From the NCBI GenBank assembly GCA_903839675.1, contig CAIMDB010000020.1:1-41918 (forward strand): 41,918 bases of DNA, written 5' to 3'. Positions 10,065 through 33,398 of the stretch are shown here, one piece after another. Below the pieces are notes generated by a model. It was not told the DNA's origin. It searched no databases and was given only the letters and a program-made list of their open reading frames with translations. The DNA is from an uncultured Sphingomonadales bacterium (GTDB taxonomy: Bacteria > Pseudomonadota > Alphaproteobacteria > Sphingomonadales > Sphingomonadaceae). The number at the start of each line of letters is the position of its first letter. Within the stretch, counting starts at the first letter, position 1. The position numbers and the translations under genes were made by a program.

Positions 10065-10069
10065 TTGGA

Positions 10070-10508: not shown

Positions 10509-10512
10509 AAAA

Positions 10513-10890: not shown

Positions 10891-10921
10891 TGCTTCTCTC
10901 CTTTAAATTTGATTCGCGGAC

Positions 10922-12034
<1,113 letters not shown>

Positions 12035-12165: not shown

Positions 12166-13101
12166 CTATCGTCCGGCGCGGGCCAAAAAGCTGAGATGCG
12201 CATCAGCAAAAGCCTTCGGGTCTTCGATCATCGGAACGTGTGCCAGATGGTCAAAAACCACGGATTCGCTGCCTTCTATGCGTGCTTCCAAGACGTCGAC
12301 CGCACTGACGTCGATCAAACGGTCATGCTTGCCCCAGATAATAAGTGTCGGACATTTCACTTCGTGCAAGCGGTCGTTGACCGGGTTTTCGAGCGAATCC
12401 TGCGCGATTGCCAAGAAGATCTTATCGAGGAGCGCTTCGCGTCCCTTTGCTTCGTTGAACATGACCTTCTTGAACTGGCCGGGGATCGGCCGGGGCTTAT
12501 GCGCCACAAAGGCCATGAGTTGATCTATGTCGGCCGGCTTGCGCACGACCAGCGGGTTCTGGCCTTCCGTCACAAGCTTCTGCAACTCGCTCTCATTGGC
12601 GCCGGTTACGCCCGCATTGTTCACTAGGGTCAGCGTGGTGAGCCGATGGCCATGGTCAAGCGCGGCTTGGAGCGCGATGAAGCCACCCATGCTGTTACCC
12701 GCGACGTGGCACTTTTCGATGCCCATTGCGTCCAGGAACTGGATCAGGCGGCCCGTCTGTGCCGCAATTGAATAGTCCCTCTCCGCGGAAACATCACTCT
12801 CGCCAAAGCCGGGTAGGTCAGGTGAGATCATCCGATATTTGTCGGTAAAGTGGTGGGCTGCGAACGACCAACTGTCTTTGTCCGCGCCGAAGCCGTGCAC
12901 AAAGACGATGATCTCTCCATCCGCAGGGCCACCTTCCAGATATGGCCATGCCGCACCATCCACTCGCACGCTCTTTTGCACCAGCCTGCCTTTGCGGCGC
13001 ATCGCCTTTTGGAATTGGCGGTACAGGATGGCAGGGGACACAACATAAAGCAGCACGGGAAGGGCAATGAGAATTGCCGCGGTGATGAGAAGATAGTTCA
13101 T
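12166..13101 (-). CDS. Membrane-anchored alpha/beta hydrolase (lipase/ABHD6-like)
   Basis: 311 aa. An N-terminal hydrophobic helix (residues 3-21) probably anchors the protein in the inner membrane. The hydrolase fold follows: oxyanion HGFG at 69-72, nucleophile elbow GNSMGG with S137, acid D260 (WGKHDRLID) and His H288 (HLAHVPMIED), a complete triad. The overall pattern resembles the monoacylglycerol lipase/ABHD6-type esterases. It lies 25 nt downstream of a second, unrelated-looking hydrolase gene on the same strand. Its place just before frmA raises the question of an S-formylglutathione thioesterase role, but it does not look like the EstD family and the membrane anchor argues for lipid substrates. 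Confidence 0.85.
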   Translation of the reverse strand: MNYLLITAAILIALPVLLYVVSPAILYRQFQKAMRRKGRLVQKSVRVDGAAWPYLEGGPADGEIIVFVHGFGADKDSWSFAAHHFTDKYRMISPDLPGFGESDVSAERDYSIAAQTGRLIQFLDAMGIEKCHVAGNSMGGFIALQAALDHGHRLTTLTLVNNAGVTGANESELQKLVTEGQNPLVVRKPADIDQLMAFVAHKPRPIPGQFKKVMFNEAKGREALLDKIFLAIAQDSLENPVNDRLHEVKCPTLIIWGKHDRLIDVSAVDVLEARIEGSESVVFDHLAHVPMIEDPKAFADAHLSFLARAGR

Positions 13102-13126
13102 AATTTCAGTAGGTTCCGTCTTAATC

Positions 13127-14002
13127 TTAATTCAGGTGCTCAGCGATCCAGCCTGACACCAGATCCAAGACTTCATTGCGTTCGGGTTCATTGAAGACCT
13201 CATGATAGAGGCCCGGCAAATCTTGGAATGTCTTGTCGGTTGAAGCCAGCTTGCCGAACATCTCCCGAGCGCCAGCGGGTGAGGCGAGGCTGTCTTCGCT
13301 GCCATGGACGATGAGCAAGGGCAGGGTGATGCGCTTCGCATTGTCCTGCACCGTCGTCATCGCGTCGAGCATCTCGGCGGCCAGTCGCGCACTCATCTTC
13401 CCTGTATGGACCAAGGGGTCCGCCAGATAGGCCGCAACGACGGACGCGTCCCGGCTGACACCGTTTGAGTCCAACTGCAAGATCCCGGTTTGCGGCGCGA
13501 GGCGTGACAGCAACCGACCGATGATCCGCGTGGCCGCTGAGGGTGCCACGGCCGGTTTGACGGCAGGACCCGACAAAACGGCCCCGAGATAATCCTGTTG
13601 ATGGTCCAGCAAATGTGCGGTCGCGATGAGGCCGCCCATGCTGTGTCCAACAAGGATGCGCGGGAGGTCCGGATGCGCGCCCTTCACAAAGGATAGCAGC
13701 GCGTCCAGCCCATCGAGGAAAACGGAAAAGTCCGGCACAAACCCACGGATACCGTCGGAGCGGCCATGGCCCCAATGATCAATGGCAAAGACGGCAATCT
13801 GGTCCCGTCCAAAACGTTCGGCAACATGGTCGTAGCGGCCGAGGTGCTCTGCATAGCCGTGCGCGAGCAGGACGACAGCCCGCGGCGCATCCGGCATCCA
13901 GCTTTGATAAAACAGCTTGTCCCCAGCGGCACGAGACCCGGTGGTCAATGCCAATGTGCCGGACGAAATTTTCACGGCCTTCTCTCCCCCAATAGCCTGC
14001 AT
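13127..14002 (-). CDS. Alpha/beta hydrolase, monoacylglycerol lipase/lysophospholipase type
   Basis: 291 aa. The Hydrolase_4 (serine aminopeptidase S33-like) pattern is clear: LLAHGYAEHLGRYDHVAERF, DHWGHGRSDG (cap signature), GHSMGG nucleophile with S121, acid D237 (VHGSEDSLASP) and H267 (GLYHEVFNEPE). This matches bacterial monoglyceride lipases or lysophospholipase PldB-like enzymes. The ATG at 14002 has little upstream ribosome site; an in-frame GTG at 13975 is preceded by GGGGGAGAGAAGG and could be the true start, giving 282 aa. It sits between the CoA-lyase gene (47-nt gap) and another hydrolase (25-nt gap), all on one strand, consistent with a lipid or ester catabolic unit. Confidence 0.86.
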   Translation of the reverse strand: MQAIGGEKAVKISSGTLALTTGSRAAGDKLFYQSWMPDAPRAVVLLAHGYAEHLGRYDHVAERFGRDQIAVFAIDHWGHGRSDGIRGFVPDFSVFLDGLDALLSFVKGAHPDLPRILVGHSMGGLIATAHLLDHQQDYLGAVLSGPAVKPAVAPSAATRIIGRLLSRLAPQTGILQLDSNGVSRDASVVAAYLADPLVHTGKMSARLAAEMLDAMTTVQDNAKRITLPLLIVHGSEDSLASPAGAREMFGKLASTDKTFQDLPGLYHEVFNEPERNEVLDLVSGWIAEHLN

Positions 14003-14049
14003 TCAGGTCTATGCCGCAGACTATGCATGGTCAGGCTGCCGGTGTCGAC

Positions 14050-14952
14050 TCAACTGCGGACCGAATAGCTGTCTGCGAGTGCGAGGATGGACTGAGCCTG
14101 CTTCAAATGAGGAATGTCGACCATCTTTCCGTCTAGCCCGATGGTTCCCGCACCGGGGTTGGCGGCAAACGCTTCAACGATGCGCCGCGCCTGCGTGATC
14201 TCGTCCTGTGTCGGCAGATAGCTCTCGTTGATAATCGGCACTTGCGCGGGGTGGATTGCCAAGCGACTGCTGAACCCTTCGCTGCGTGATGCGCGGGAGG
14301 AGGCGCGAAGGCCATCTTCATCGCGGAAGTCCGCATGGAGTGTGTCGATGGCCTGCACACCAGCGGCATGTGCGGCCAGCAAAGTCAGGGATCGAGCCAT
14401 CCGATAGGTGAAGGACCATTCCCCGGTCGCGTCTCGGTTTGTGCTGGCGGCTACCGCTGTTGCGAGATCTTCAGCGCCCCATGTCATCCCGGCGAGGCGG
14501 GTTAGACCGGCGCTTGCAAAGTCCCCGAGATGGAATGGCGCAACCGCCGTCTCGGTCGCGACGGGTACAATGCGTGTCTGCCCTGCGGCAAGGTCATGCT
14601 GCGCCTCAAACGCATCAAGATAGTGGGACAGCGTCCGCACGCAGTTCGGAGTGTTCGTCTTCGGCTGCATGATGCCGTCGGGTTGCATCCCGATGATGGA
14701 TTTCAAATCTGCCAGTGTATCGGCGCTGTCGAGCGGATTGATACGGACCCACAATTGCGACGTGCGCGCGCCGGTTGGGCGGTCTGCAAGAAAGGCTGCC
14801 ACGAGGTCTCGGGCGGCGGGTTTCCGGTCGGCGGCGACAGAATCTTCGAGATCAAGGATCAGCGCGTCGGCACCGCAGCTGTCCGCCTTGGCGAGCTTCT
14901 TCGCACTGTCGCCGGGAATGAACAGCCAGGACCTTGGGGGGGCTTTGTGCAT
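14050..14952 (-). CDS. HpcH/HpaI-family CoA ester lyase (CitE/Mcl-like)
   Basis: 300 aa. A TIM-barrel lyase of the citrate lyase beta/malyl-CoA lyase group. Motifs are SWLFIPGDSAKKLAKA at the start, ILDLEDSVAADRK (metal-site acid), WVRINPLDS, IMQPKTNTP, ATETAVA, GMTWGAEDLATAV and AIHPAQVPIINESY. ATG 14952 is chosen with AGAGG 7 nt upstream; a TTG one codon earlier is less likely. Possible substrates include malyl-CoA, citramalyl-CoA or similar, which cleave to acetyl-CoA or propionyl-CoA plus glyoxylate or pyruvate; the sequence alone does not decide. No CitF/CitD citrate-lyase partners are adjacent, so a stand-alone enzyme is favoured. It is the first gene of the long - strand block. Confidence 0.85.
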   Translation of the reverse strand: MHKAPPRSWLFIPGDSAKKLAKADSCGADALILDLEDSVAADRKPAARDLVAAFLADRPTGARTSQLWVRINPLDSADTLADLKSIIGMQPDGIMQPKTNTPNCVRTLSHYLDAFEAQHDLAAGQTRIVPVATETAVAPFHLGDFASAGLTRLAGMTWGAEDLATAVAASTNRDATGEWSFTYRMARSLTLLAAHAAGVQAIDTLHADFRDEDGLRASSRASRSEGFSSRLAIHPAQVPIINESYLPTQDEITQARRIVEAFAANPGAGTIGLDGKMVDIPHLKQAQSILALADSYSVRS

Positions 14953-15134
14953 CAAATTGCCTCTTGCGCTTCACATTTCAAACGCTGTCTAAACGCCTGC
15001 CGCGAAAAGCCAACTGCCTGTCATGTGGCATGACCTTGTTGATCACGAAAGCAGCGCCCATTTGGCAATCTTGATGGCAATGGCTTGACCATCTTCAGGA
15101 ATGTTATATTTTATAACAAAATAGGAGATCTTCC
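14953..15134. promoter_or_regulatory. Divergent promoter region with two perfect palindromes
   Basis: This region separates the CoA-lyase gene (-) from the aldehyde dehydrogenase gene (+). GTCATG-TGG-CATGAC (15020-15034) is a perfect 6-bp inverted repeat. TGTTATA-TTT-TATAACA (15102-15118) is a perfect 7-bp inverted repeat lying 5 nt before the AGGAGA ribosome site of the dehydrogenase gene. A possible promoter is TTGACC (15085-15090) with a -10 such as TATTTT (15107-15112), inside the second palindrome, so a bound repressor would block it. Confidence 0.5.
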
Positions 15135-16532
15135 ATGAAGTTTGAGCGTATCAACCCGATCACCGGTGCCGTTGCCTCCAGCGCGCCTGCAATGCAGGCC
15201 TCGGACATTCCGGCCATTGCTGACAAAGCGGCCGCGGCATTCCCGATCTGGGCAGCCACAGGCCCGAATGCGCGCCGCGCCGTTTTGATGAAGGCGGCGG
15301 CCGCTCTTGAATCCAAGGCGGACGCCTTTGTGGAAGCGATGATGGCCGAAATCGGGGCGACCAAGGGGTGGGCGCTCTTCAACCTCGGCCTCGCCGCCTC
15401 CATTGTCCGCGAAGCGGCTGCCCTGACCACACAAATTTCGGGTGAAGTCATTCCGTCTGACAAACCGGGCTGTCTCGCCATGGCGCTGCGCGAGCCCGTG
15501 GGCGTCATCTTGGGCATCGCGCCATGGAATGCACCGATCATCTTGGGCGTGCGCGCCATTGCTGTCCCTCTGGCCTGTGGGAATGCCGTGATCCTCAAGG
15601 CGAGCGAGACGTGCCCACGCACACATGAAATCATTGTCGAAGCCTTTGCTGAAGCTGGTTTCCCTGAAGGTGTCGTCAATGTCGTCACCAACGCGCCTGC
15701 CGATGCGGGCGATGTGGTGGGCGCGCTCATCGACGCCCCTGCCGTCAAGCGGATCAACTTCACAGGGTCCACCGCCGTTGGCCGGATCATCGCCAAGCGT
15801 GCGGCGGAACATCTAAAGCCGTGCTTGCTGGAACTGGGCGGCAAGGCGCCGTTGATCGTGCTGGAGGATGCCGATTTGGATGAGGCCGTGAAGGCGGCTG
15901 CCTTTGGTGCCTTCATGAACCAGGGTCAGATTTGCATGTCGACCGAGCGGATTATCGTTGTTGAAGCGGTGGCCGACGCCTTTGCGGCCAAGTTTGCCGC
16001 CAAGGCCAAGAGCCTCGCCACCGGCGACCCGCGCGAGGGGACGACCCCACTTGGCGCTGTGGTGGATCGCAAGACGGTGGATCATGTCAACAGCCTCATC
16101 AACGACGCGACCGCAAAGGGTGCGACGGTCCTTTCGGGCGGCACGGCTGAGTCCGTGCTGATGCCTGCAACAGTTGTCGATGGCGTGACTTCCGCCATGA
16201 ATCTCTATCGCGATGAGAGCTTCGGCCCGATCGTTGCGATGATCCGCGCCAAGGATGAAGCTGACGCGATCCGCCTCGCCAATGACAGCGACTATGGCTT
16301 GTCCGCGTCCGTCTTCACCAAGGACACAGCGCGCGGCCTCGGCGTAGCGCGTCAAATTAAGTCGGGCATCTGCCATGTGAACGGACCGACCGTGCATGAC
16401 GAAGCGCAGATGCCCTTCGGTGGTGTCGGCGCGTCAGGCTATGGCCGCTTCGGTGGCAAGGCCGGGATCGACAGCTTCACAGAGCTGCGCTGGATCACGA
16501 TCGAAACCCAGCCGGGACACTTCCCGATCTGA
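15135..16532 (+). CDS. NAD(P)-dependent aldehyde dehydrogenase, vanillin/salicylaldehyde dehydrogenase-like
   Basis: 465 aa. All catalytic residues of the ALDH superfamily are present: N132 (PWNAPIILGVR), E233 (LELGGKAP) and the nucleophile C267 in NQGQICMSTER. That Cys context, together with a short N-terminus and the APWNAPIIL segment, is typical of aromatic aldehyde dehydrogenases such as vanillin and salicylaldehyde dehydrogenases. The exact substrate cannot be fixed from sequence. ATG 15135 follows AGGAGA (15123-15128). The gene stands alone on the + strand, divergent from the CoA-lyase gene and convergent with folD, with a perfect palindrome over its likely promoter. Confidence 0.9.
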   Translation: MKFERINPITGAVASSAPAMQASDIPAIADKAAAAFPIWAATGPNARRAVLMKAAAALESKADAFVEAMMAEIGATKGWALFNLGLAASIVREAAALTTQISGEVIPSDKPGCLAMALREPVGVILGIAPWNAPIILGVRAIAVPLACGNAVILKASETCPRTHEIIVEAFAEAGFPEGVVNVVTNAPADAGDVVGALIDAPAVKRINFTGSTAVGRIIAKRAAEHLKPCLLELGGKAPLIVLEDADLDEAVKAAAFGAFMNQGQICMSTERIIVVEAVADAFAAKFAAKAKSLATGDPREGTTPLGAVVDRKTVDHVNSLINDATAKGATVLSGGTAESVLMPATVVDGVTSAMNLYRDESFGPIVAMIRAKDEADAIRLANDSDYGLSASVFTKDTARGLGVARQIKSGICHVNGPTVHDEAQMPFGGVGASGYGRFGGKAGIDSFTELRWITIETQPGHFPI

Positions 16533-16542
16533 GCTTGGCGAC

Positions 16543-16569
16543 GCCCCTCAGGCTGCGGTGCTGAGGGGC
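16543..16569. terminator. Convergent hairpin between aldehyde dehydrogenase and folD
   Basis: GCCCCTCAG (16543-16551) pairs with CTGAGGGGC (16561-16569) around a 9-nt loop. The stem covers the last codons and stop of folD and lies 10 nt past the aldehyde dehydrogenase stop. It could serve as a bidirectional terminator, although no T-run is present on either side. Confidence 0.5.
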
Positions 16570-17438
16570 ACGTCAATTTGCGGCGCAAGCCCTGCGACGC
16601 GTTCTGCCGACTTGATCGTGTTTTCCAGTAGCATCGTCACCGTCATTGGCCCGACCCCGCCGGGGACAGGCGTGATGGCCGACGCGCGCCAGCGGACGCC
16701 TTCAAAATCTACATCACCGGTTATGCTGCCATCGGGCATGCGGTTGATGCCGACGTCGATCACAACAGCACCGGTTTTCACCATCTGCGGCAGGATGAGA
16801 TTGGGGACGCCTGCTGCCACCACCAATATGTCGGCAAGGATCGTGTATTGGGCAAGGTCACGTGTCTTGGCGTGGCAGATCGAGACGGTCGCATCGCGGG
16901 CCATCAGCATGAGCGCCATCGGTTTGCCGACGATGTTGCTGGCCCCAACGACGACCACATTCTGCCCTTCAATCGGGATGTTCTCGCTTTCGAGGAGCTT
17001 GACGACGCCATAGGGCGTGCAGGGCGAAAAGACCGTGTTGCCGGTGACGAGCCCGCCGACATTGTAGAGATGGAATCCGTCGACGTCCTTATCGACCGCG
17101 ATGGTTTCCAGCACCTTCGCCATGTCGATATGCGCGGGAAGGGGAAGCTGGACGAGGATGCCGTGGACATTCTCGTCAGCGTTCAGCTCTTCGATGCGAT
17201 TGAGCAGTGCTTCGTTGGTGATGTCAGCCGGATAACGGTCCGTGAAGGAACGGATGCCGACATTTTCACAGGCCTTGATCTTCTTGCCAACATAGACGGC
17301 AGAGGCCGGGTCTTCACCGACCAGGATCACAGCCAGACCCGGTGTCACACCATGCTGGGCAAGCGTCCGCACGCGCGCCGCGCATTCCTTGCGGATTTCT
17401 GCGGCGAGTTTCTTCCCGTCGATCAGCTTGGCTGACAT
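16548..17438 (-). CDS. folD: Methylenetetrahydrofolate dehydrogenase/cyclohydrolase FolD
   Basis: 296 aa from ATG 17438, which has AAGGA about 10 nt upstream; an upstream ATG (17498) in frame would add 20 residues that do not resemble FolD and would run through a palindrome. The bifunctional enzyme interconverts 5,10-methylene- and 10-formyl-tetrahydrofolate with NADP+. Visible motifs are the YVGKK stretch (catalytic Tyr-x-x-x-Lys-type element in DPASAVYVGKKIKAC), QLPLPAHID, DVDGFH, PCTPYGVVKLL, the GASNIVGKPMA dinucleotide segment and TPVPGGVGPMTVTML. It lies downstream of the LysR gene but behind its own palindromic leader. Confidence 0.96.
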   Translation of the reverse strand: MSAKLIDGKKLAAEIRKECAARVRTLAQHGVTPGLAVILVGEDPASAVYVGKKIKACENVGIRSFTDRYPADITNEALLNRIEELNADENVHGILVQLPLPAHIDMAKVLETIAVDKDVDGFHLYNVGGLVTGNTVFSPCTPYGVVKLLESENIPIEGQNVVVVGASNIVGKPMALMLMARDATVSICHAKTRDLAQYTILADILVVAAGVPNLILPQMVKTGAVVIDVGINRMPDGSITGDVDFEGVRWRASAITPVPGGVGPMTVTMLLENTIKSAERVAGLAPQIDVPLSTAA

Positions 17439-17462
17439 GAGTGGCATTCCTTTGTGTGTGAT

Positions 17463-17483
17463 TTTGTATGCGTTACATACAAA
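17463..17483 (-). promoter_or_regulatory. Perfect 21-bp palindrome upstream of folD (candidate operator)
   Basis: TTTGTATG (17463-17470) and CATACAAA (17476-17483) are perfect 8-bp inverted arms with a 5-nt CGTTA spacer. The element is centred about 35 nt before the folD start codon, in the 66-nt gap after the LysR gene. Its AT-rich symmetric form is that of a transcription-factor operator more than of an RNA terminator. The cognate regulator is unknown; the TTGTAT/ATACAA core recalls GntR-type sites. Confidence 0.45.
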
Positions 17484-17504
17484 GTGCGATTCCGGCAAGG
17501 GGCG

Positions 17505-22804: not shown

Positions 22805-23001
22805 TCGCAGGACTGTAACGCTGGCTGCTCCCTTAAATCATTAATATTAATTGATTTTATCTGCAGCCACATTGTTGCCGGCTGCCGGAGAGCACATTCA
22901 CAAAGGCTTCAGCAAAGTGACATGATGCCGACGTCGTGACGACCCTTGGCCGTCATTCGCGTGCGTTAGTGGCTCGTTCTCCTGTTATCTGGAGTCGTTT
23001 C
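22805..23001 (+). promoter_or_regulatory. Leader of the TonB receptor gene, with an AT-rich palindrome
   Basis: This 197-nt gap follows the PII-like gene. It contains the perfect 12-bp palindrome ATTAATATTAAT (22840-22851) within a broader imperfect AATCA...TGATT symmetry, a plausible operator or promoter core. The receptor's start at 23002 is supported by GGAG (22991-22994) 7 nt upstream. Nothing else was recognised in the gap. Confidence 0.35.
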
Positions 23002-25272
23002 ATGCGCCGAATGTCCTTGTTTGCTATTCTTCTTTCCTCAACCACGAGCCTGACGGCCCATGCCCAAAGTGTGCCGGCAGATGAGGTTTCGAGAGAAGAC
23101 GACATCATCGTCACGGCCCAGAAGCGTGAAGAACGCCAGATTGATGTGCCGATTACGCTGTCTGCTATAACGGGCACACGTCTGCGCGAAATTGGTGTCA
23201 ATGATTTGGATGAACTTTCAAACTATATCCCGGGCCTCAACATCCAGGAGCAGAGCGCGAACAACCCCGGCATCGTTATCCGCGGCATTACATCTGACTC
23301 CGGCTCAGCGCAGCAAGGTGCGCGTGTCACGCTCTATTATAACGGCGTTGATATCTCTCGCTCGCGCGGTTCGTATCAGGACATTTACGATATGGAGCGC
23401 ATTGAGGTCGTTAAGGGACCACAAGCGACGCTCTTTGGAACCGCCTCTGCGGTTGGCGCGATCAGCCTGATTTCCGCGCGGCCAGAAGAAGGCTATAGCG
23501 GCGAACTGGCCGGCACTTATGGCAACTTCAATCAATATTCAGCGACCGGCTTTATCAATGCAGGTTCGGAAAAGCTCGCGGGACGCGTGGCCTTTGCCTA
23601 CAAAAAGCGTGACGGCTACGTGAACAATCTGGCTGTTGGCCAAGAGGATCTATACGCTCAGGACCAGTTTGGCGCGCGCGGTTCGCTGCGGTTCAAACCC
23701 ACTGAAGCGATGACGGCTGACCTGATCCTGACCTATGACCGTCAGCGGAACTCAGGCACGCCGTTCATCTCGCTCACCTATCCAACCGCGTCGGGCGCGC
23801 CGAATGCCTTTGGCGATGCAGCGCTTGGCGGCACACCCAATTCCCTCCGCGATCTTGGACTGAGCAAGCTTGGTCTGAAGCGCGATGTCTATGATGCCAA
23901 TTTGACGGTCAACTGGGATATCGCAGACGATTGGACGCTCACTTTGGTCAACGGCTACCGCAAGTTTGACTCGCTTGAAGTCTTCGATGCGGACGGGACA
24001 GCCGCTGAGTATCTTGAATTCGCTGAACTCGCCAAAGGCGATCAGTTTAATCAGGAAACGCGCTTCTCCTACAACAGCGACAACTTCCGTGGATCGTTCG
24101 GGTTCAATTACTTCCACGAAAACGGCGTGCAGAATGTGCCCTTCTCCACAAATGAGAACGTGTTCTTTGCCTGCCTTACAGCAACCGCTGCCACGCGCGC
24201 GCAGTGCGTAGCACCAGGGGGTGGCGTTCCTGCTGCCGCTGCACCACGCATCAACTATACGTCATTCTTTGAAAATCAGGGCCGCAACACGAGCTACTCA
24301 GTGTTTGCTGACGGTACTTGGATCCCGACGCCGCGTCTTGAGATTACGGCCGGTGTCCGCGTGCAGATTGAAAAGCGGCTTTCGGGCTTCCGCGCTGGCG
24401 TGCCGCGTTCAACGTTGACGGGCGGCGCTTCGGTCGTCCCCGGGCAAGTCGATACGGCAGGCCGGACGTTCACGTCTGAGGATAGCTATGCCGACGTGCT
24501 TCCGCGCCTCAATGTGCTGTATAAGTTCTCCGACAATTTCAATGGTTATGCCACCGTATCAAAGGGACGTCGCTCTGCCATCGTCAATGTGGGCGCGCGC
24601 GCCACAGCGGGTGGCCCCGTTGCCAACATTTCGCCGGTTCTTGAGGAAGTGCTCTGGAACTACGAGCTTGGGGTAAAGGGCACAGTCGGTATCGTTTCTG
24701 GATCCATCGGCGTCTATTACCTGACATATGACAATTTCCAGGTGAGCATCATCATCCCGCCAAGCATCGTCGGGGTGACGCAAAGCGCGGGTACGGCGAC
24801 GAACAAGGGCATTGAGGCCGAAGTGAACATCCGCCCTGCATCATGGCTGACAATGTTCGCCAATGGCGCTTACATCGATGGCGGCATCGACAATCGGCCA
24901 GATATCGCGGCAAACTTCCGCGGTGCCAAATTCCGGTTGCAGCCTGACTATCAGGCCGCGGCAGGCTTGATCATTGATGCGCCAATCGGTGGCGTTAACG
25001 TGTTTGCGACGCCAAGCATCACTTATCGGAGCAAGCTGTTCTTCGAAACACCAAACCTTGAAGCGCGAAGCCAAGGGCCAGTGACGCTCGTCAATATCGT
25101 TGGCGGCGTTCGGTTCGCTGACAATCGCTACGAAATCTCGGCCTTTGCGCGCAACGTTTTCAATAAGCGCTATCTTCTCGATGCCGGAAACACCGGTGGG
25201 GCGTTTGGTATTCCGACCTTCATCCCGGGTGAGCCACGGTTCTACGGTTTGAAAATGAGCGCAAAATTCTGA
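23002..25272 (+). CDS. TonB-dependent outer membrane receptor, substrate unknown
   Basis: 756 aa from ATG 23002 (upstream in-frame GTG 22936 gives a non-signal extension and is rejected). A signal peptide (MSLFAILLSSTTSLTAHA) is followed by a TonB-box-like segment DDIIVTAQKREERQ. The plug domain carries LREIGVNDLDELSNYIPGLNIQ, GIVIRGITS and IEVVKGPQATLFGTASAVGAISLIS. The rest is a 22-strand-type beta barrel ending in FYGLKMSAKF with the terminal Phe. It resembles the sphingomonad FecA/CirA-like receptors for siderophores or organic ligands. It is monocistronic: an intrinsic terminator follows and no transport or enzyme gene accompanies it, so the substrate stays open. Confidence 0.93.
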   Translation: MRRMSLFAILLSSTTSLTAHAQSVPADEVSREDDIIVTAQKREERQIDVPITLSAITGTRLREIGVNDLDELSNYIPGLNIQEQSANNPGIVIRGITSDSGSAQQGARVTLYYNGVDISRSRGSYQDIYDMERIEVVKGPQATLFGTASAVGAISLISARPEEGYSGELAGTYGNFNQYSATGFINAGSEKLAGRVAFAYKKRDGYVNNLAVGQEDLYAQDQFGARGSLRFKPTEAMTADLILTYDRQRNSGTPFISLTYPTASGAPNAFGDAALGGTPNSLRDLGLSKLGLKRDVYDANLTVNWDIADDWTLTLVNGYRKFDSLEVFDADGTAAEYLEFAELAKGDQFNQETRFSYNSDNFRGSFGFNYFHENGVQNVPFSTNENVFFACLTATAATRAQCVAPGGGVPAAAAPRINYTSFFENQGRNTSYSVFADGTWIPTPRLEITAGVRVQIEKRLSGFRAGVPRSTLTGGASVVPGQVDTAGRTFTSEDSYADVLPRLNVLYKFSDNFNGYATVSKGRRSAIVNVGARATAGGPVANISPVLEEVLWNYELGVKGTVGIVSGSIGVYYLTYDNFQVSIIIPPSIVGVTQSAGTATNKGIEAEVNIRPASWLTMFANGAYIDGGIDNRPDIAANFRGAKFRLQPDYQAAAGLIIDAPIGGVNVFATPSITYRSKLFFETPNLEARSQGPVTLVNIVGGVRFADNRYEISAFARNVFNKRYLLDAGNTGGAFGIPTFIPGEPRFYGLKMSAKF

Positions 25273-25369: not shown

Positions 25370-26734
25370 CTAGGCAATCCGTGCGCCCTGCCGCAGCAGT
25401 TCCGATTGCACTTTTCCGATATCTACCTCGGCAAAGTCACGGGCGGTTTTCACACCGACCGCTGCGGCCACGCCTGCGCCTTGCCCGGCCACTGCGCAGC
25501 ACATCATGTTGCGGACGGCCGCATGGCTCACCTTGTCGCCGCCGATTACGCGGCCAGTGACAATCAGGTTCTTGATACCCTTGGGCAACATCGACCGATA
25601 CGGCACATGGAAATAGCGGCCTGTGGTCGGTAAAATCAGATAGCCATAGCCATCAATGAATTCCGGGAAGATGCCGACGCTATCGTCAAACCGGCCCTGT
25701 TCCATCACGTCATCGGCCGTCATGTTGAAGACGGCGTCAATCTTGCGCGTGTCGCGGATGCCAAGCGTCATGCCGAAGTTGCGCAGCTTGGCATCCTCGC
25801 AGCCGGGCATGAAGGCCTGGAGCGCGGCAATGGCGTGCATCGCCTGTTTGCGCCCCGCCATTTCGCCATGGGTCAGCGCATCGGGATTGGTGCCGTCGAG
25901 ATAGAGGTGGCACATGTTGAGATAGGTCAGGTCACCCTGATCGGAGACGGTGCCCCACGTGCCGGCCATGGTTTTCACACTGTCTGGGATCAGCCCTGCC
26001 TCCAGCGCCTTCTGGAACGGCTTACGCAGGAAGGGGGAGAACATTTCGTCCTCCTTGCCGCTGGTGATCACTTCCCATTCCCCGCCCACGGCCCAGTCGC
26101 CATAAGTCTGCGGGTCAGCTTTGACTGCATCGATGAAGCGGCCCTTGTTGACCCCGCACATGGAGAACATGACGGAGACGGACATCATCTCGTCCACCGG
26201 ATGCATGTGGGTTGGTGCGCCTGCACGGTGGGCGATGTCAGCGTCGCCCGTCGCGTCAATCACCCGCTTTGCAAGGATCGCCTCGCGGCCTGCCTTGCTT
26301 TCGACGATGACGCCTCGGATCGTGTCTCCCTCCATGATCGGCGCGACGCACAGGCGGTGCAGCATGGGGATGACGCCCGCTTCCTCAACCAGCGTATCGG
26401 CGACGAATTTGAACCCCTCAGCATCAAGGCTGTGGCTGATGGATTGCGGTTCCGGCATGGCCGCGCCCATCGCCTTGGCGCGATCTTCAAATTCCCGCCC
26501 AATACCTTCGCTGTCGATGGTCGCGGGGTGGCGATACCAGGCAAAGCCCTCCACGCCGACCTGCGTGATGTTGCCGCCAAAGCAGCCATAGCGTTCGAGC
26601 AGGGTTGTCTCGACACCCGCCCGTGCCGACGCTAGCGCAGCCGCAAGGCCGCCGGGCCCGGAGCCGACCACGAGCACGTCGGTCTCGCGGATCACGTCGA
26701 TCTGGCGGGCGGGCTCGGTGATGGTGGCGGTCAT
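25370..26734 (-). CDS. FAD-dependent oxidoreductase coupled to betA (FAD_oxidored, PF12831-like)
   Basis: 454 aa. ATG 26734 overlaps the betA stop by 4 nt; the open frame extends upstream only as an alternative reading of betA. A dinucleotide fold with GSGPGG (24-29) and [11 protein letters not shown] is followed by [24 protein letters not shown] and a C-terminal [39 protein letters not shown], which matches the FAD-dependent oxidoreductases of PF12831. The substrate is unknown. Because it is translationally coupled to choline dehydrogenase, it probably acts on choline, betaine or a derivative. It is not part of the classical betIBA set, so a new step in this pathway is possible. Confidence 0.86.
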
Positions 26735-28398
26735 CGCTGGCGCGTTTCCCAATCGGGTGCCACGTAGTAAGGGGCGTTGGAGGGGGCCAGCATCGGCTTG
26801 CCGAGGATATGATCGGCGCCCTTTTCCCCGATCATGATCGTCGGCGCATTGAGGTTGCCTGTGGTGATTGTGGGCATGATGCCGCTGTCCACGACGCGCA
26901 GACCCTGAACCCCGATGACGCGAAGTTCGGGATCGACGACGGCCATGGGGTCCTGCGGGCTCCCCATCTTGCACGTGCAACTGGGGTGGAGCGCGCTTTC
27001 GACGTGCTCGGCAATGAACGCGTCGATCTGATCGTCGGTCACGCAATCCGCGCCGGGCTGAATCTCGCGGCCACGGAAAGGCGCGAAAGCGGGCTGCTGA
27101 AAGATTTCGCGCGTCAGGCGGACGCAGGCCCGCATGTCCGCCCAATCATCGGGATGGCTCATATAGTTGAACAGGATTTTGGGCTTTTCGTGCGGGTCGG
27201 TGCTGCGGAGCGTCACCGCGCCGCGGCTCTTGGAGCGCATCGGGCCGACATGGGCCTGAAAGCCATGTTCGGTGGCCAGTGACGACCCATCATAATTGAT
27301 CGCCATCGGGAAGAAGTGATATTGAATGTCTGGATATTTGATCCCGGCGCGGCTGCGGATGAAGCCGCAGCTTTCAAACTGGTTTGACGCGCCGACGCCT
27401 TTGCGCCCGAACAGCCATTGCGCCCCGACCATCGCTTTGCCGAGCAGATTGGCTTTGCCGTAGAGGGTAATCGGCTGGGTGCAGGCCATCTGGAAGTAGA
27501 ATTCCAGATGATCTTGCAGGTTTGCGCCGACGCCCGGGCGGTCTGCGCGCACTTCAATCCCGTGCTCTTTCAACTCCTCTGCAGGGCCGATGCCGGACAG
27601 CTTGAGAAGCTGGACGGAATTGATCGGCCCGCCAGACAGGATGACTTCGCGTGCGGCGCGCAACTGGTGCAGCTTGCCCGCCTGTTCAAATTCGATGCCA
27701 ACAGCGCGTGTGCCCTCAAACAGGATCCGCGTTGCGAGTGCCTGTTCAATGACCTGCAGATTGGGCCGCTTGCGCGCCTCATACAGATAGGCTTTGGCCG
27801 CCGAACAGCGCGTGCCGTTCCGCACGGTCATATCCATCCGGCCAAAGCCTTCCTGAGCGTAACCGTTATAGTCTTCGGTCAGACCATAGCCGGCTTGTTG
27901 CGCGGCATCGAGCCAAGCGTGATGCAGGGGGTTGTCGAGCGGGCCATAGCTTGTCGAGAGCGGACCATCGCCGCCACGATATTCATCGCCGCCTTCGGCC
28001 CGGCCTTCGGCGCGTTTGAAATAAGGGAGCACATCGGCATAGCCCCAGCCGGTGGCGCCGTCCTCATCCTTCCAGCGTTCGAAATCGAGCGCATTGCCGC
28101 GCACATAGACGAGGCCGTTGATCGAGGAGGAGCCACCCAGACCCTTGCCGCGTGGGCAGTTCAGGCGGCGGCCATTGAGGTGCGGTTCGGGCTCACTTTC
28201 ATAGCCCCAATTCCACCTTTTTGTGTTCATGGGGTAGGCAAGCGCTGCGGGCATCTGGATGAAGATGGAACGGTCACTGCCGCCAAATTCAAGCAACACC
28301 ACCTTATGTTTGCCATCCGCGCTCAGGCGGTCGGCGAGCACGCATCCGGCCGACCCTGCACCGACGATGATGTAATCGGCAGCCTCAATAGGGGGCAT
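26731..28398 (-). CDS. betA: Choline dehydrogenase BetA (GMC oxidoreductase)
   Basis: 555 aa, the length of E. coli BetA. ATG 28398 is chosen for its GGAG 7 nt upstream and for [19 protein letters not shown]; it overlaps the end of the preceding gene by 14 nt. FAD motif GAGSAGC at 13-19, the GMC signature [21 protein letters not shown], and the active-site pair H471 (HPSCTCKMG) and N517 (TGNLNAPT) are all present. It oxidises choline to betaine aldehyde, possibly further to betaine, at the membrane. The order regulator-betB-betA matches the classical betIBA operon, supporting BetA rather than another alcohol dehydrogenase. No choline transporter gene lies in the window. Confidence 0.9.
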
Positions 28399-30382
28399 CG
28401 ATCTTCTCCATCGCGACATAGACGCTCTTGAGCTGGGTATAATGCTCGATCGCCGCGCGCCCGTTTTCGCGGCCGAGCCCCGATTGCTTGTTGCCGCCAA
28501 AGGGCATTTCAATCGGGGTGATGTTGTAGGTGTTGATCCAGCAGGTGCCCGCCTCCAGCGCCGCGATCACGCGGTGGGCGCGGGTCAGATTGTTGGTGAA
28601 AATGCCGGCGGCCAGACCGAAGCTGGTGTTGTTGGCGCGCGCCACGACCTCGGCTTCATCTTCAAAGTCGAGCACTGCCATGACGGGGCCGAAAATCTCT
28701 TCGCGCACAATCGCCATCTCATCGGTGCAGCCGGTGAAGATGGTGGGTTCGACAAAGGCGCCTTTTGCCAGATCACCCGTCGTCACACGTTTGCCGCCCG
28801 TTAGCATGGTCGCGCCTTGCTGTTGGCCAAGCGCGATATAGCCGAGCACCTTTTCCAGATGCGCCGGGGAGATCAGAGCGCCCATCTGCGTCGCCGGATC
28901 CAGCGGATCGCCGATCACCATCGCTTCGGTTCGGGCCTTCAGCTTGGCGAGGAAGGCATCGCGGACGGACTTGTGGACAAAGACACGCGTGCCATTGGTG
29001 CACACTTCGCCCGCTGAATAGAAATTGGCGAGCAGGGCGCCCGACACGGCTTCATCCAGATCGGCATCTTCGAACACGATCAGCGCGGATTTGCCGCCCA
29101 GCTCGAACGTCACATATTTGAGCGTGCCTGCGGCATCGACCATCACCTTCTTGCCGGTGCCGACTTCACCCGTGAGCGACACCTTGGCGATGTCGGGGTG
29201 GAGGCTGAGCATGCGGCCCGTATCGGCCTTGCCCTGCACAACCTGAAACAGTCCATCGGGCAGGCCTGCATCGCGATAGGCTTTCTCCAGCTCGATGGCG
29301 GTCAGAGGCGTGAGTTCCGCAGGCTTGAAGATCATCGCGTTGCCACAGGCCAGCGCAGGCGCTGATTTCCAGCAGGCGATCTGGATGGGGTAATTCCAAG
29401 CGCCAATGCCAGCAACCACGCCCAAAGGCTCGCGCCTCGAATAGCCAAATGCGCCGCTGCCGAGATCATGATGTTCGCCGGCGATGGTGCGGGCGAGTCC
29501 GGCATAATATTCGATGCAATCCGCACCGGACAGGACGTCTACGGCAATGGTTTCTTGAATGGGTTTGCCAGTGTCCTGTGCCTCGAGCCGAGCGATCGCC
29601 TCATTGCGCTCAACCAAAAGGGCCGCCGCGCGGTGCAGGATACGCCCACGCTCCACCCCGGGGGTCTTGGCCCAGAGCTTTTGCGCCTCGGCGGCACGGG
29701 CTACGGCCTTGTTGACTTCTGCCTGCCCGTCGATCTGGATTGTCGCGAGCACTTGCCCTGTTGCCGGATTGATCGTGTCAAAGCTCGTGGCGGTGGGGGA
29801 GGGCGGGGCGCCCTTCAGATTGCGGGCGATGAAATCAAAGATCAGATCGCGGGCCAGACCATTTTGCAGGGCTGATCCGCCGTTCATCGCCGCGCGCAGC
29901 CAAACGCCATCGACCATCGCGGCGATGGTGTCTGCCATTGGCTGCACGTCGCTGGCGTCGACCAGTTGGCGCAGATCAAATTTCAGATTGGACAGCATCC
30001 GCTGCTGATGCGCGCGTTGCACCCGTGCCAGTTGGGGCACATGCAGTGCCTCTCCCCAGAAGGATAACCAGACACGCGCCGTTTCCTCAGCATAGTCGTT
30101 GTGGCCAAGGTGGGCGTCCACCAAGGCCTCAATGCGCGCACGGGGCCCAGCGGCGAGCCGAAGTCTTGCTGTGGCGTAAGTGTTCAATTGTCGTGCCACG
30201 GATCGGAAGGCCGCTTCAAGCAGCGCATCCTTGCTGCCGAAATAGTGGACGATCAGCGCTGCCGAGACGTCGGCTCGCTGGGAGACCTTGTTGAACGTAA
30301 ATTCAACGATACCATCCTCAGCCAGTGTGGAGACGGCGGCATCGATGAGGTGTTGGCGGCGGGATGCGGATAAATCAGTCAT
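28385..30382 (-). CDS. BetI-BetB fusion: TetR-type repressor joined to betaine aldehyde dehydrogenase
   Basis: 665 aa in one uninterrupted frame from ATG 30382. Residues 1-190 are a full-length BetI-like TetR protein: HTH about 29-52 ([30 protein letters not shown]), [21 protein letters not shown] and [11 protein letters not shown] as in BetI. A short Pro/Ala/Thr linker (191-200) joins directly to BetB, which starts at [16 protein letters not shown] and lacks the usual first ~20 residues of free BetB. ALDH catalytic residues are intact: N330 (WNYPIQ), E427 (FELGGKSA), C461 ([10 protein letters not shown]). No start codon with a ribosome site lies at the junction (29783-29812). The protein should both oxidise betaine aldehyde to glycine betaine and repress its own operon through the palindrome 18 nt upstream. 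Confidence 0.9.
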
Positions 30383-30399: not shown

Positions 30400-30419
30400 T
30401 ATTGAATATCCGTTCAATA
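30400..30419. promoter_or_regulatory. Candidate BetI operator
   Basis: TATTGAA (30400-30406) and TTCAATA (30413-30419) are perfect 7-bp inverted arms with a 6-nt spacer. The 20-bp element lies 18 nt upstream of the BetI-BetB start codon. Size, symmetry and the TTGAA/TTCAA core fit a TetR-family operator, specifically BetI-like, so the fusion protein is expected to bind here. Confidence 0.7.
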
Positions 30420-30608
30420 TAGAGGCCTCTGAGTCTTCGTTTCTTTAAGCCTGCTGGACGATTGGCGCGAAGCCATCCGCGACCGCGCCCGCATTGCCCA
30501 TCCGTAAAAGTTACAGAAATCACACAAATGTCACAGATCGGACATTCAGCTGTAATGGGTTAATCATAGCCCGTTTTGGCAAACAAAATATGCCAACTCG
30601 GGGGTTTT
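30420..30608. promoter_or_regulatory. Divergent spacer between the bet and phytase operons
   Basis: Beyond the BetI palindrome this spacer holds promoters for both directions. GTTACAG (30510-30516) and GTCACAG (30530-30536) form a degenerate direct repeat in an AT-rich stretch. TAATCA (30561-30566) may serve as a -10 for the TonB receptor, and GGGGG (30600-30604) lies 4 nt before its ATG. No clear Fur site was seen. Confidence 0.35.
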
Positions 30609-33398
30609 ATGCTTTACGGTCGTTCTTCGCTGCGGGTCAGCAGCTTTAAGGGTTTCCTGCTGTGTTCCGCGGTCTTCGCCGGATGTGTCAGCCCTGATGC
30701 GGCATTCGCGGCTGAAGTTGCCGAAGAAGAAATCATCGTCACGGGGTCCCGCCCGATTGCCGAATCTGAAGCGGCGGCACTTGAAGTGCAGAAGAATGCA
30801 GATTCGCTTGTGACCGTTGCCGCATCGGACGCCGTGGGCCGCTTGCCGGACCAGAACATCGCACAGGCCGCCGGTCGACTGCCGGGCGTTGCTGTTGAAC
30901 GCGATCAGGGCCAGGCCCGTTATATTTCGCTCCGTGGCGCCCCGAACTATTGGACGACATTGTCGTTTGACGGGATCAACATTGTCAGCCCGGAAGGCCG
31001 CGACGCGCGCTTTGACTCGATCCCATCCGCCATTGCATCGCAGATCATCGTGTCGAAGGCCGTGACACCAGACATGCCCGGCGAAACTGTCTCCGGTAAT
31101 GTGAATGTCATCACCCGTTCGGCCTTTGATTATTCTGGCCTCCACGTCGCCGGTAAGGCAGGCGCTGGTGTTGCCGAACTCGGCAATCGCAAGCAATATG
31201 AAGGCTCGCTCGTCGTGTCAGACCGCTTTCAGGCGGGCGAAGGCGAAATCGGCGTTCTGGTGTCGGGCAGCTACTATCAGCGCGGCATGATCACGGACAA
31301 TTTTGAAACCGATTATGAGCGCGTGTCGCAGGATCAACGTCCGGGGAACACCACGCGCTTTTGGGCGCATGAAACGGAGAACAAGCTGTACCGTCTGACG
31401 CGCCGGAACTGGTCCGTATCTGGCCGCTTGGATTGGAAGCCTGACAGCGACAATACGATCTCGCTTCGGTCGGTCTACACGATCTTCAAGGACGATGAAG
31501 CCCGCGACAACTTCCGCTTTGACCTTGACGACCGCCAGGGTGATTTGTCGAACAGTTCTGCCGCCTGCACCATCACGGCGAACCCGACGCCGACGAACAC
31601 CGGATATGCCGATGTTTGCATTGGCAACACGCCATTCCAGGGGACGGTTTACGGCATCGACATTCGCCAGCGCTCCACACTACGCGCGTTCCGCCAGTCG
31701 ATCTTCACGAATACACTGACAGGCGATCACGAATTTTCAGATGGCTGGAAGCTGACATGGCTCGGAAACTTCTCGGAATCCAAGGATGACCGTTCGGTTG
31801 TCGGGGAAGCCAGCTGGGACAGCCCGAGCACGCGCACGTTGCGGCCGACCGTTTCCTATGATTTCACCGACCCAAATCGGGGTAACCTGAGCCTGTTCAA
31901 CACGCTACAGCTTTCCGGCCCAACGCGATATCAGGCGGGTACAGCGGTAACGGCCATCGACACCTTTACCAAGCCTCTTTCCTCGTTGACTGTCCTTGAC
32001 GCAGTTGACACGACCAAGGCTTACACGGGCAAGCTGGTCCTGGCTCGTGAAACTGAGTTTCTGGGCGGCGACATGACGTTCCGCGCTGGCTTCCAGTTCG
32101 ACCAGCGCACCAAGACGGTGGACGAAAGCCAGATCACGCTCAATACAGCGGCGCAGTTCACAACGGTAGGGATCCCGACCGACTATAACCAGTTCTCGCT
32201 GGATCAGCCGTTCCTCGGCAAGATCCCAATGGGTTATACGTTCCGTTATTTTGACACGAGCAAGATGGAAGACGTGTCAGAAGCCGCCCGCGCAAACTTT
32301 GCCTTCGCCCCGAATACCGGAAACATCTATGATGTGCGTGAGCAGGTTTATGCCGGTTTCCTGATGGGCAATGCCAAGTTTGACTGGGGCTCCGCCGTCG
32401 GCGGGGTTCGCGTGGAACACGTCAAGAACCGCGGCATCGCTGTCGCAACGGTTGCCGGCGTTACTGGCCCTGTAACCGCGGAATCGAGCCAGACGCTCGT
32501 CTTCCCAAGCATGCACATCAACTACAATGTTGATGACACCAAGAAGCTGCGCCTCTCGTTCAACTCGGGCGCAGCCCGTGCGGATTATGATCAGCTGCGT
32601 CCTAACGTGACGGTCAACGACTCCGACCAAAGCATTTCCGGCGGCAATCCTGCGGTGAAGCCGGAACGCGCTTATGGCCTCGATGCCTACTTCGAATGGT
32701 ATATGAAGCCACAGGGCTATCTGATGGCCGGTGTGTTCGTAAAGAAGGTGAAGGACGTCCTGTATCGCCAGACACGCACCTTTGGTTCGGATGCATTGGA
32801 CAGCAACAACATTGATCGTTCGGGGTATCGGTTCACGGGCATCACCAACGGTGGCGATGGACGGATTTACGGTTTTGAAGCCGCGGCCCAGCTTCAGTTG
32901 GAGCCTTGGACAGCATCGATGGGCCTGCCGGACTGGATGGGTGGCTTTGGGATCAGCGCCAACCTGACCCTCAACGACAGCGAAGTCACGAAGCCCGCTA
33001 TTGGTGCAGTTCCGGCCCGCAAGGTTCGACTGCCCGGCACGTCGGACGTGGTTTACAATGTTGGCGGCTATTACGAAAAATATGGCGTCTCGCTGCGTCT
33101 CCAATATCAGAAGCGGAGCACCTGGCTTGATGGCATCGCAGATGACCTGACCGATGCCGGTGACACCTATTGGGCCTCGGATGACGAGCTCGATTTCTCG
33201 GCGCGTTATGCCATCTCGCCGAACTTCGAAGTCTTCTTCGATGCCACCAACCTGCTGGATCAACCCGGCCGTCGTTACTCGGATCCGGGCAATCTGCTGA
33301 CGGCGTTGGGCACACCGACTGCGGCCAGCACGGCGCAGACGATTGAATGGGAACAGTTTGGCCGTCGCTTCAGCGGTGGCTTCCGGTTCAACTTCTGA
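30609..33398 (+). CDS. TonB-dependent receptor (TIGR01782 type), probable phytate/inositol-phosphate receptor
   Basis: 929 aa from ATG 30609 (an in-frame TTG at 30576 would spoil the signal peptide). Signal peptide through ...AAFAA, then TonB box EEEIIVTGSRP. The plug has VGRLPDQNIAQAAGRLPGVAVERDQGQARYISLRG and SQIIVSKAVTPDMPGETVSGNVNVITR, the pattern of the large Caulobacter-type receptors. The barrel ends in RRFSGGFRFNF. The receptor stop and the phytase ATG share one base (TGATG), so the two are translationally linked. By association it probably takes up phytate or its products across the outer membrane; the sequence alone does not prove the ligand. Confidence 0.92.
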   Translation: MLYGRSSLRVSSFKGFLLCSAVFAGCVSPDAAFAAEVAEEEIIVTGSRPIAESEAAALEVQKNADSLVTVAASDAVGRLPDQNIAQAAGRLPGVAVERDQGQARYISLRGAPNYWTTLSFDGINIVSPEGRDARFDSIPSAIASQIIVSKAVTPDMPGETVSGNVNVITRSAFDYSGLHVAGKAGAGVAELGNRKQYEGSLVVSDRFQAGEGEIGVLVSGSYYQRGMITDNFETDYERVSQDQRPGNTTRFWAHETENKLYRLTRRNWSVSGRLDWKPDSDNTISLRSVYTIFKDDEARDNFRFDLDDRQGDLSNSSAACTITANPTPTNTGYADVCIGNTPFQGTVYGIDIRQRSTLRAFRQSIFTNTLTGDHEFSDGWKLTWLGNFSESKDDRSVVGEASWDSPSTRTLRPTVSYDFTDPNRGNLSLFNTLQLSGPTRYQAGTAVTAIDTFTKPLSSLTVLDAVDTTKAYTGKLVLARETEFLGGDMTFRAGFQFDQRTKTVDESQITLNTAAQFTTVGIPTDYNQFSLDQPFLGKIPMGYTFRYFDTSKMEDVSEAARANFAFAPNTGNIYDVREQVYAGFLMGNAKFDWGSAVGGVRVEHVKNRGIAVATVAGVTGPVTAESSQTLVFPSMHINYNVDDTKKLRLSFNSGAARADYDQLRPNVTVNDSDQSISGGNPAVKPERAYGLDAYFEWYMKPQGYLMAGVFVKKVKDVLYRQTRTFGSDALDSNNIDRSGYRFTGITNGGDGRIYGFEAAAQLQLEPWTASMGLPDWMGGFGISANLTLNDSEVTKPAIGAVPARKVRLPGTSDVVYNVGGYYEKYGVSLRLQYQKRSTWLDGIADDLTDAGDTYWASDDELDFSARYAISPNFEVFFDATNLLDQPGRRYSDPGNLLTALGTPTAASTAQTIEWEQFGRRFSGGFRFNF

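What the first reader, a model, noticed from the sequence alone, without database searches (positions are those of the whole stretch)
28385..30382. BetI repressor and BetB dehydrogenase fused into one polypeptide
Seen: one open frame encodes a complete BetI-like TetR protein, a ~10-residue Pro/Ala/Thr linker and BetB with all catalytic residues. The BetB part has lost the N-terminal ~20 residues of free BetB, and no start codon with a ribosome site exists at the junction, so this is not just two abutting genes. Known: in classical betIBA operons BetI and BetB are separate, and BetI is relieved by choline. Inference: a fused regulator-enzyme could sense betaine aldehyde or NAD+ state through the dehydrogenase and pass it to the DNA-binding part, as in PutA. 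BetI is dimeric and ALDHs are dimers or tetramers, so the fusion could also bridge two operators and loop DNA. I do not know of a described example.
Basis: partly seen in the sequence, partly recalled or inferred. Interest (0 to 1): 0.93.

Follow-up and report, generated by a model that had tools for sequence, protein, structure and literature searches.

The report
Choline repressor fused to its enzyme
A gene switch that shuts off choline breakdown and one of the enzymes it controls are made here as a single protein, and the same joined protein recurs in many other soil and water bacteria, in a few of which the enzyme half has lost its active site but is still kept.

Summary
Window 28385-30382 (-) is one open frame of 665 aa: complete BetI, a linker of about 9-12 residues, and BetB with its catalytic residues; no start codon with a ribosome site was found at the junction. 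It is no artefact: in 79 of the 80 best genome contigs relatives one frame spans both halves, in Alpha- and Gammaproteobacteria. A joint tree gives one origin, from betI-betB gene pairs that in some relatives overlap. betA follows in 76 of 76 loci with room; in 22 of 22 fused genomes tested the fusion is the only close BetB.

Two further findings. Separate BetI genes mostly carry overlapping double operators; fused genes carry single TTGA-N8-TCAA sites (98 of 110 rows), 29 with a second site 91-165 bp away. In one genus BetI is fused to an ALDH domain without catalytic residues, in frame in 6 of 6 species, dN/dS 0.21-0.46.

Best reading: a self-regulating repressor-enzyme, analogous to PutA but of other families. 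Signalling between the halves is untested. Seven literature searches aimed at it found no description.

The parts
28385..30382 (-). betI-betB fusion gene, 665 aa plus stop
   Evidence: single open frame; Pfam and NCBIfam hits; one frame in relatives
30209..30349 (-). TetR_N helix-turn-helix domain (residues 12-58)
   Evidence: PF00440, E 5e-11
29816..30145 (-). BetI-type C-terminal domain (residues 80-189)
   Evidence: PF13977 TetR_C_6, E 1.3e-23
29789..29815 (-). linker between the Pfam domains (residues 190-198)
   Evidence: pLDDT below 50 at 191-196; junction scan found no start in this row
28421..29788 (-). aldehyde dehydrogenase domain, BetB type (residues 199-654)
   Evidence: PF00171, E 2.6e-172; NF009725 above cut-off; Asn330, Glu427, Cys461 invariant in the fused set
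30401..30418 (.). operator 1, dyad ATTGAA-N6-TTCAAT; its core ends 19 nt and begins 35 nt upstream of the start codon
   Evidence: an exact TTGA-N8-TCAA site between -400 and +150 in 98 of 110 fused rows
30291..30306 (.). second operator-like site TTGAA-N6-TTCAA inside the coding region, 111 bp from operator 1
26731..28398 (-). betA, choline dehydrogenase; its start overlaps the end of the fusion by 14 nt
   Evidence: NF002550 899.1 bits and TIGR01810 839.5 bits, both above cut-offs; betA next on the same strand in 76 of 76 loci with room
25370..26740 (-). FAD_oxidored family protein (start approximate), probably the third gene of the operon; function unknown
   Evidence: PF12831, E 2.9e-84; a same-strand match somewhere in the locus in 18 of the 76 loci with room
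30576..33398 (+). divergent TonB-dependent receptor (true start uncertain); possible second target of operator 1
   Evidence: Plug and OMP_b-brl_3; a TonB receptor also stands divergent from the fusion in Komagataeibacter

Best explanation
One protein is both the repressor and the second enzyme of choline oxidation. The BetI half binds a single TTGA-N8-TCAA operator at the start of its own operon ([betI-betB]-betA, here plus an FAD oxidoreductase) and is released by choline or a related compound; the BetB half oxidises betaine aldehyde. The fusion arose once, from a neighbouring betI-betB gene pair, and the overlapping double operator of ordinary BetI gave way to single or well-separated sites, perhaps because an ALDH on every subunit leaves no room for two overlapping dimers. 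Shown by sequence: the fusion, its conservation, its one clade in the joint tree, its catalytic residues, its operators, its gene order, and its being the only close BetB. Inferred: DNA binding, choline response, enzyme activity and the steric argument. Open: whether the ALDH half signals to the BetI half.
For: Intact frame and domains; 79 of the 80 best relatives fused in one frame; 30 of 30 aligned members have all three Pfam domains; invariant Asn, Glu and Cys in 112 fused rows; one clade in the joint tree (33 rows, SH-aLRT 88; 99 with the separate sister group); operator in 98 of 110 fused rows, 0 in one shuffle of each; overlapping second operator register in 4 of 81 fused against 28 of 37 separate; betA next in 76 of 76; no second BetB at E up to 1e-120 in 22 of 22 fused genomes; two folded halves with a low-confidence link in the AF2 model.
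Against: No biochemistry. The linker varies from 15 to 47 residues and is unconserved (0.37 against 0.81 in the ALDH part), so tight mechanical coupling is unlikely. The operator contrast follows the clade, so rows are not independent; the separate sister group has an N4 core (5 of 7) and no exact N8 site, not a clean double N8 one, and 14 of 54 separate genes have no exact N8 site. 12 of 110 fused rows show no exact site. In the single-domain trees the fused label needs 4 changes, in the joint one 1; these are quick trees without bootstrap. BetI-only descendants exist (L209 = L266, and L267), so the ALDH half is dispensable in some genomes. Several Ancylobacter-type fusions keep an in-frame ATG at the old betB start, so some free BetB may be made there.
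Confidence: 0.78

Rival explanations
1. PutA-like trigger enzyme: betaine aldehyde or NAD(H) bound by the ALDH half changes the shape or oligomer of the protein and so switches DNA binding.
For: PutA joins a DNA-binding domain to an ALDH, and its DNA binding is changed by substrate and by NAD+ and FAD (PMC9132996, passages). An ALDH domain without catalytic residues kept in frame with dN/dS below 0.5 in six species suggests that an ALDH fold can stay useful to BetI without catalysis.
Against: Linker long, variable and unconserved in active fusions; the dead domain has also lost the NAD-binding loop, so there it cannot sense NAD+ in the usual way; BetI without an ALDH is described as choline-responsive (passages of PMC12442346).
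Confidence: 0.25
2. Operator bridging: the ALDH oligomer holds two BetI dimers, so that one assembly ties two distant operators into a loop.
For: 29 of 110 fused rows and 3 of 3 dead-ALDH rows have two sites 91-165 bp apart, 0 of 54 separate ones do; overlapping doubles are mostly lost.
Against: 81 of 110 fused rows show fewer than two exact sites; 15 of the 29 come from one clade; no common phase; a BetI-only descendant (L209) also has two sites, 140 bp apart; in divergons each site may serve its own promoter; one dead-ALDH locus (L263) showed no exact site of the tighter pattern.
Confidence: 0.25
3. Neutral tether: loss of a stop joined two neighbouring genes; both halves work as before and the joining itself has no function.
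For: Separate betI and betB can lie in one frame with only a stop or a few codons between (22 loci, 15 distinct gene pairs, some of them fetched because their read-through frame was long), or overlap as ATGA (L200, L205, L206), so joining is easy; the linker is unconserved.
Against: One clade retained over a broad spread, with few splits among the rows seen; the operator pattern differs with the fusion.
Confidence: 0.35
4. Assembly or sequencing artefact.
For: None for the window; one relative (L046) breaks its frame at residue 563 and one (L228) is split at the junction.
Against: One frame in 79 of 80 assemblies, isolates included; annotated as one 2,079-bp gene in a complete Komagataeibacter plasmid.
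Confidence: 0.01

Closest known systems
BetI (TetR family, TetR_C_6) of betIBA operons
   Same: same domains, same half-sites TTGA/TCAA, same operon neighbours betB and betA
   Different: covalently joined to BetB; operator mostly a single N8 site instead of the overlapping box (a published box is ATTGACG*CGTCAAT, PMC12442346 passages)
BetB / ALDH9-type betaine aldehyde dehydrogenase (PDB 3r31, 2wme, 6wsa)
   Same: 56-58% identity to these three over the ALDH part, same fold, catalytic residues kept
   Different: N-terminal ~19 residues replaced by BetI plus linker
PutA (trifunctional proline utilisation A)
   Same: catabolic ALDH and a DNA-binding repressor domain in one chain; represses proline utilisation genes (PMC9132996 passages)
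   Different: unrelated DNA-binding domain (ribbon-helix-helix, recalled), additional proline dehydrogenase domain, different substrate
BzdR (DNA-binding domain plus shikimate-kinase-like domain)
   Same: enzyme domain turned into an effector domain of a regulator (abstract of PMC3602430); the dead-ALDH branch is the parallel
   Different: different families; there a plausible pathway was rebuilt with synthetic chimeras, here active, dead and shortened forms all occur in nature

Membership tests
BetI repressors | TetR_N plus BetI-type C-terminal domain above Pfam cut-offs | tested here: met
   42.6 and 83.8 bits against 24 and 27; both found in 30 of 30 aligned members
BetI repressors | operator with TTGA...TCAA half-sites before the bet operon | tested here: met
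   two sites in the window, 98 of 110 fused rows, but rarely the overlapping double form of separate BetI genes (4 of 81 against 28 of 37)
BetI repressors | choline-responsive DNA binding | not testable with these tools
   needs EMSA or footprinting
BetB betaine aldehyde dehydrogenase | equivalog model above curated cut-off | tested here: met
   NF009725 768.8 bits, cut-off 593; but TIGR01804 657.3 bits is just under its cut-off of 668.6
BetB betaine aldehyde dehydrogenase | catalytic Asn, Glu, Cys | tested here: met
   Asn330, Glu427, Cys461, invariant in the fused set
BetB betaine aldehyde dehydrogenase | betaine aldehyde oxidation | not testable with these tools
   needs an assay
PutA | proline dehydrogenase domain and PutA-type DNA-binding domain | tested here: not met
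   only TetR_N, TetR_C_6 and Aldedh found; it may work like PutA but is not one
trigger enzymes (regulator-enzymes) | one chain is both pathway enzyme and DNA-binding regulator of that pathway | tested here: inconclusive
   architecture and operators fit; neither activity measured
trigger enzymes (regulator-enzymes) | regulation depends on enzyme substrate or cofactor state | not testable with these tools
   no biochemical data

The most novel reading that the evidence does not exclude
BetI-BetB is a TetR-class regulator-enzyme in which the ALDH oligomer is part of the regulatory device: it joins BetI dimers, excludes the ordinary overlapping double operator and bridges separated operators. 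In one genus the same domain has then lost catalysis while staying under selection, so that a natural series exists from separate genes, through an active regulator-enzyme and a regulator with a dead enzyme domain, to a shortened BetI.
Probability: 0.3. Interest if true: 0.88.

Novelty: new variant of a known kind. Interest (0 to 1): 0.74.

Why it matters
Choline-to-betaine oxidation and BetI are well-studied systems, yet a widespread form with repressor and enzyme in one chain goes under the name betaine-aldehyde dehydrogenase in the record opened, and the curated models that name such proteins hit 30 of 30 fusions tested. It gives a family in which to ask how a repressor works when its dose is tied to its enzyme's dose, how operators change when a large enzyme is hung on a TetR dimer, and how an enzyme becomes a regulatory domain. 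The last was approached for BzdR by building chimeras (abstract); here active, dead and shortened forms occur in nature.

Tried and rejected
Artefact, hidden stop and internal start: rejected for the window. Burkholderia multivorans and Indioceanicola hits that tblastn reported as one piece were checked and are separate genes; one-piece hits can read through stops, so only open-frame checks were used to call fusions. Several origins of the active fusion: not needed by the joint tree, although the ALDH-only tree places the seven separate sister genes beside a Caulobacterales group inside the fused clade (SH-aLRT 87). No AU test was run.

DNA-level selection on the second site inside the coding region: third positions there are not significantly more conserved (3 usable codons, P 0.25), although TTGA-N8-TCAA survives amino-acid changes in L045; one of 18 rows (L036) has lost the site; left open. 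PMC7824335 uses the word fused, but the passages shown concern methyltransferases (12 of 14 places shown). Section 20 of PMC12442346, on two BetIs, does not mention a fusion. Solved structures: none of the 60 chains listed (of 269 matched) had a best stretch over both halves; the BetI half alone matched 37 sequences, best 3e7q at E 6e-13. Foldseek gave ALDHs only in the 50 rows shown.

Two of 112 fused rows were dropped from operator counts for short upstream DNA. Identical domain pairs were counted once. From the BetI tree the TetR-only loci below L030 and L173 were left out; from the joint tree L228 and the dead-ALDH rows were left out and 164 rows were thinned to 60 (two of the seven sister pairs remain). 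The separate set of 54 includes L228, which is a split fused-type gene. dN/dS is by Nei-Gojobori, with the BetI part as the only comparison; no active ALDH pair was measured.
Full report
1. The observation. The frame on the minus strand of 28385-30382 is open from ATG 30382 to the stop. It holds TetR_N (12-58), the BetI-type C-terminal domain (80-189) and Aldedh (199-654). The enzyme half passes the NCBIfam NF009725 betaine-aldehyde dehydrogenase cut-off (768.8 against 593) but falls just under that of TIGR01804 (657.3 against 668.6); the NF009725 match begins at profile position 20, so the free enzyme's N-terminus is gone. The genome has 2.9 Mb in 38 contigs, and its other ALDH matches are at most 42% identical to the query.

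2. Conservation. In the genus sample 7 of 13 genomes match across the junction in open frames of 668-724 codons; in the family sample 16 of 397. This set favours fusions by its scoring. In wider samples, which overlap each other, active fusions classified by open frame where a locus was held are: class 3 of 385 (41 matched), phylum 5 of 398 (108 matched), the order of G854, whose fusion groups with Ancylobacter, 8 of 199 (46 matched), the order of a Steroidobacteraceae genome 8 of 147 (9 matched), the order of an Acidocella genome 11 of 150 (13 matched), the order of G750, probably Caulobacterales, 2 of 150 (6 matched). Named carriers include Sphingorhabdus rigui, Ancylobacter, Azorhizobium, Bosea, Acidocella, Gluconacetobacter and Steroidobacteraceae. 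In Komagataeibacter saccharivorans it is annotated as one betB gene of 2,079 bp. All 30 proteins of alignment A1 hit the betaine-aldehyde dehydrogenase models, which would explain why the fusion is hidden by name.

3. Origin. ALDH tree (174 rows): the 112 fused rows lie in a clade of 122 (98*) with eight separate rows and two dead-ALDH rows. BetI tree (202 rows): the fused rows lie in a clade of 117 (91) with three dead-ALDH rows, one BetI-only row and L228; seven separate gene pairs are its sister group (95* for both together). In each single-domain tree the fused label needs 4 changes. Joint tree of 60 thinned rows: 33 fused rows are one clade (88) and the two remaining sister pairs join at 99*; 1 change. 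All three are quick trees with SH-aLRT support only. In three of the seven sister pairs betI and betB overlap as ATGA (L200, L205, L206). Other separate pairs lie in one frame with only a stop or a few codons between (22 loci, 15 distinct pairs, some fetched because their read-through frame was long). Many alphaproteobacterial fusions still carry what looks like the free BetB N-terminus, and Ancylobacter-type ones an ATG at the old start; the sphingomonad and many gammaproteobacterial ones do not. L228 is a fused-type gene split at the junction.

4. Is each half kept? In 112 fused rows the catalytic Asn, Glu and Cys are invariant; mean conservation is 0.74 in the HTH, 0.68 in the BetI C domain, 0.81 in the ALDH and 0.37 in the linker, whose length runs from 15 to 47 residues. 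All 30 members of A1 have all three Pfam domains. betA follows on the same strand in 76 of 76 loci with more than 800 nt downstream (of 80 loci). Of 28 genomes searched for a close BetB (E up to 1e-120), the 22 with an active fusion have one match each, the fusion itself; two sister-group, two dead-ALDH and one BetI-only genome have one separate BetB; one (G661) has none.

5. Operators. TTGAA-N6-TTCAA stands in the 260-nt upstream regions of 51 of 110 fused rows, 0.2 on average in shuffles. In the window it occurs only at 30291-30306 and 30402-30417. With the looser TTGA-N8-TCAA, 98 of 110 fused rows have a site between -400 and +150 and 29 have two separate ones 91-165 bp apart (15 of these with the second inside the coding region, all sphingomonads); separate betI genes have a site in 39 of 54 and two separate ones in 0 of 54; one shuffle per row gave 0. 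In separate genes the site is doubled by an overlapping second register 4 bp away (at most one mismatch) in 28 of 37, in fused genes in 4 of 81, chance about 0.1%. The seven sister pairs have no exact N8 site; five show a TTGA-N4-TCAA core. A published BetI box is ATTGACG*CGTCAAT (PMC12442346, passages seen). My inference: the usual box takes two overlapping dimers, as in QacR (recalled), and a large ALDH on each subunit forbids this. The second sphingomonad site lies inside the coding region; codon third positions do not prove selection on it.

6. Dead-enzyme descendants. In one genus (g378) 6 of the 18 genomes searched in its family carry BetI joined to an ALDH-like domain, and two carry BetI with a short tail. 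The search flagged one TGA in two of the six; translation shows that the frame is open to the end of the protein, so this is the terminal stop. Pfam still sees Aldedh in the two tested, but in the alignment of all six the catalytic Cys is Ala or Ser, the Glu is Asp (three), Gln or Arg, the Asn is Ser or Thr, and the NAD-binding loop is missing. dN/dS of this part is 0.21 (95% interval 0.15-0.28) and 0.24 for two close pairs, 0.44 and 0.37 for two distant ones, 0.21-0.46 over seven pairs, against 0.01-0.19 in the BetI part. The frame would survive neutral substitutions alone with probability 0.15, 0.05, 0.01 and 0.008. In L248 the gene stands divergent from genes read by eye as a choline-type substrate-binding protein, a real betB and betA; L247 has the same substrate-binding protein and betB, and L249 has plain BetI in the same place. 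Two operators lie in front of the gene in L247, L248, L249, L264 and L265, none of that pattern in L263. L114 (G661) is a second, shorter case. So an ALDH domain without catalytic residues can be worth keeping to BetI; slow decay is not excluded.

7. Structure. AF2 from 30 sequences: pLDDT 79.7, pTM 0.62; under 50 at the linker 191-196 but also at 302-316, 456-460 and 618-651 in the ALDH part. Foldseek finds BADHs (best 6wsa, E 1.9e-45). Nothing on domain coupling can be read from it.

8. Literature. Seven searches aimed at the fusion and three at operators, PutA and trigger enzymes, over held open-access papers, showed no description of a BetI-BetB fusion in their listings; subscription journals are mostly missing and no preprints are held. 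Seen: abstract, one section and passages of PMC12442346, passages of PMC7824335 and PMC9132996, abstract and outline of PMC3602430; the rest as search listings only.

9. Verdict. The finding is real and larger than claimed: an old, widespread regulator-enzyme family, with altered operators and with dead-enzyme offspring. It works like PutA in architecture but is not a PutA. Whether the enzyme half informs the repressor half is the open question.

Noticed in passing
L247 8266-10347, L248 7916-9994, L261, L263, L264, L265: BetI fused to an ALDH domain without the catalytic Cys, Glu, Asn and NAD loop but with an intact frame in six species; divergent from a transporter-like gene and a real betB where the neighbourhood was read (L247, L248).
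   Followed up: yes
L114 / L250 (G661): A second BetI fusion with a short, strongly changed ALDH remnant before betA, in a genome without a BetB match at E up to 1e-120.
   Followed up: partly
L266 and L267: BetI proteins with short C-terminal tails that may be remnants of a lost ALDH domain.
   Followed up: partly
window 30291-30306: Second operator-like site inside the BetI coding region, present in 15 of 110 fused rows, all sphingomonads; in L045 the site survives while amino acids change.
   Followed up: partly
L200, L205, L206: Separate betI and betB overlap by ATGA in the sister group of the fusions, a possible pre-fusion state.
   Followed up: yes
L058, L065-L067, L076, L078, L082, L084, L087: Ancylobacter-type fusions keep an in-frame ATG at the old betB start, without a recognised ribosome site; a second, free BetB product is possible there.
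   Followed up: partly
window 22936-25272 (+) and 30576-33398 (+): TonB-dependent receptors flank the bet operon on both sides; a TonB receptor is also divergent from the fusion in Komagataeibacter (L295), which hints at uptake of a choline compound through the outer membrane.
   Followed up: no
window 4381-17498: Genes that look by eye like formate dehydrogenase, class III alcohol dehydrogenase and FolD lie in the same window; perhaps one-carbon units from betaine breakdown are handled nearby. Not searched.
   Followed up: no
window 25370-26740: FAD_oxidored family protein after betA, with a same-strand match in 18 of 76 fused loci with room; role in the pathway unknown.
   Followed up: no
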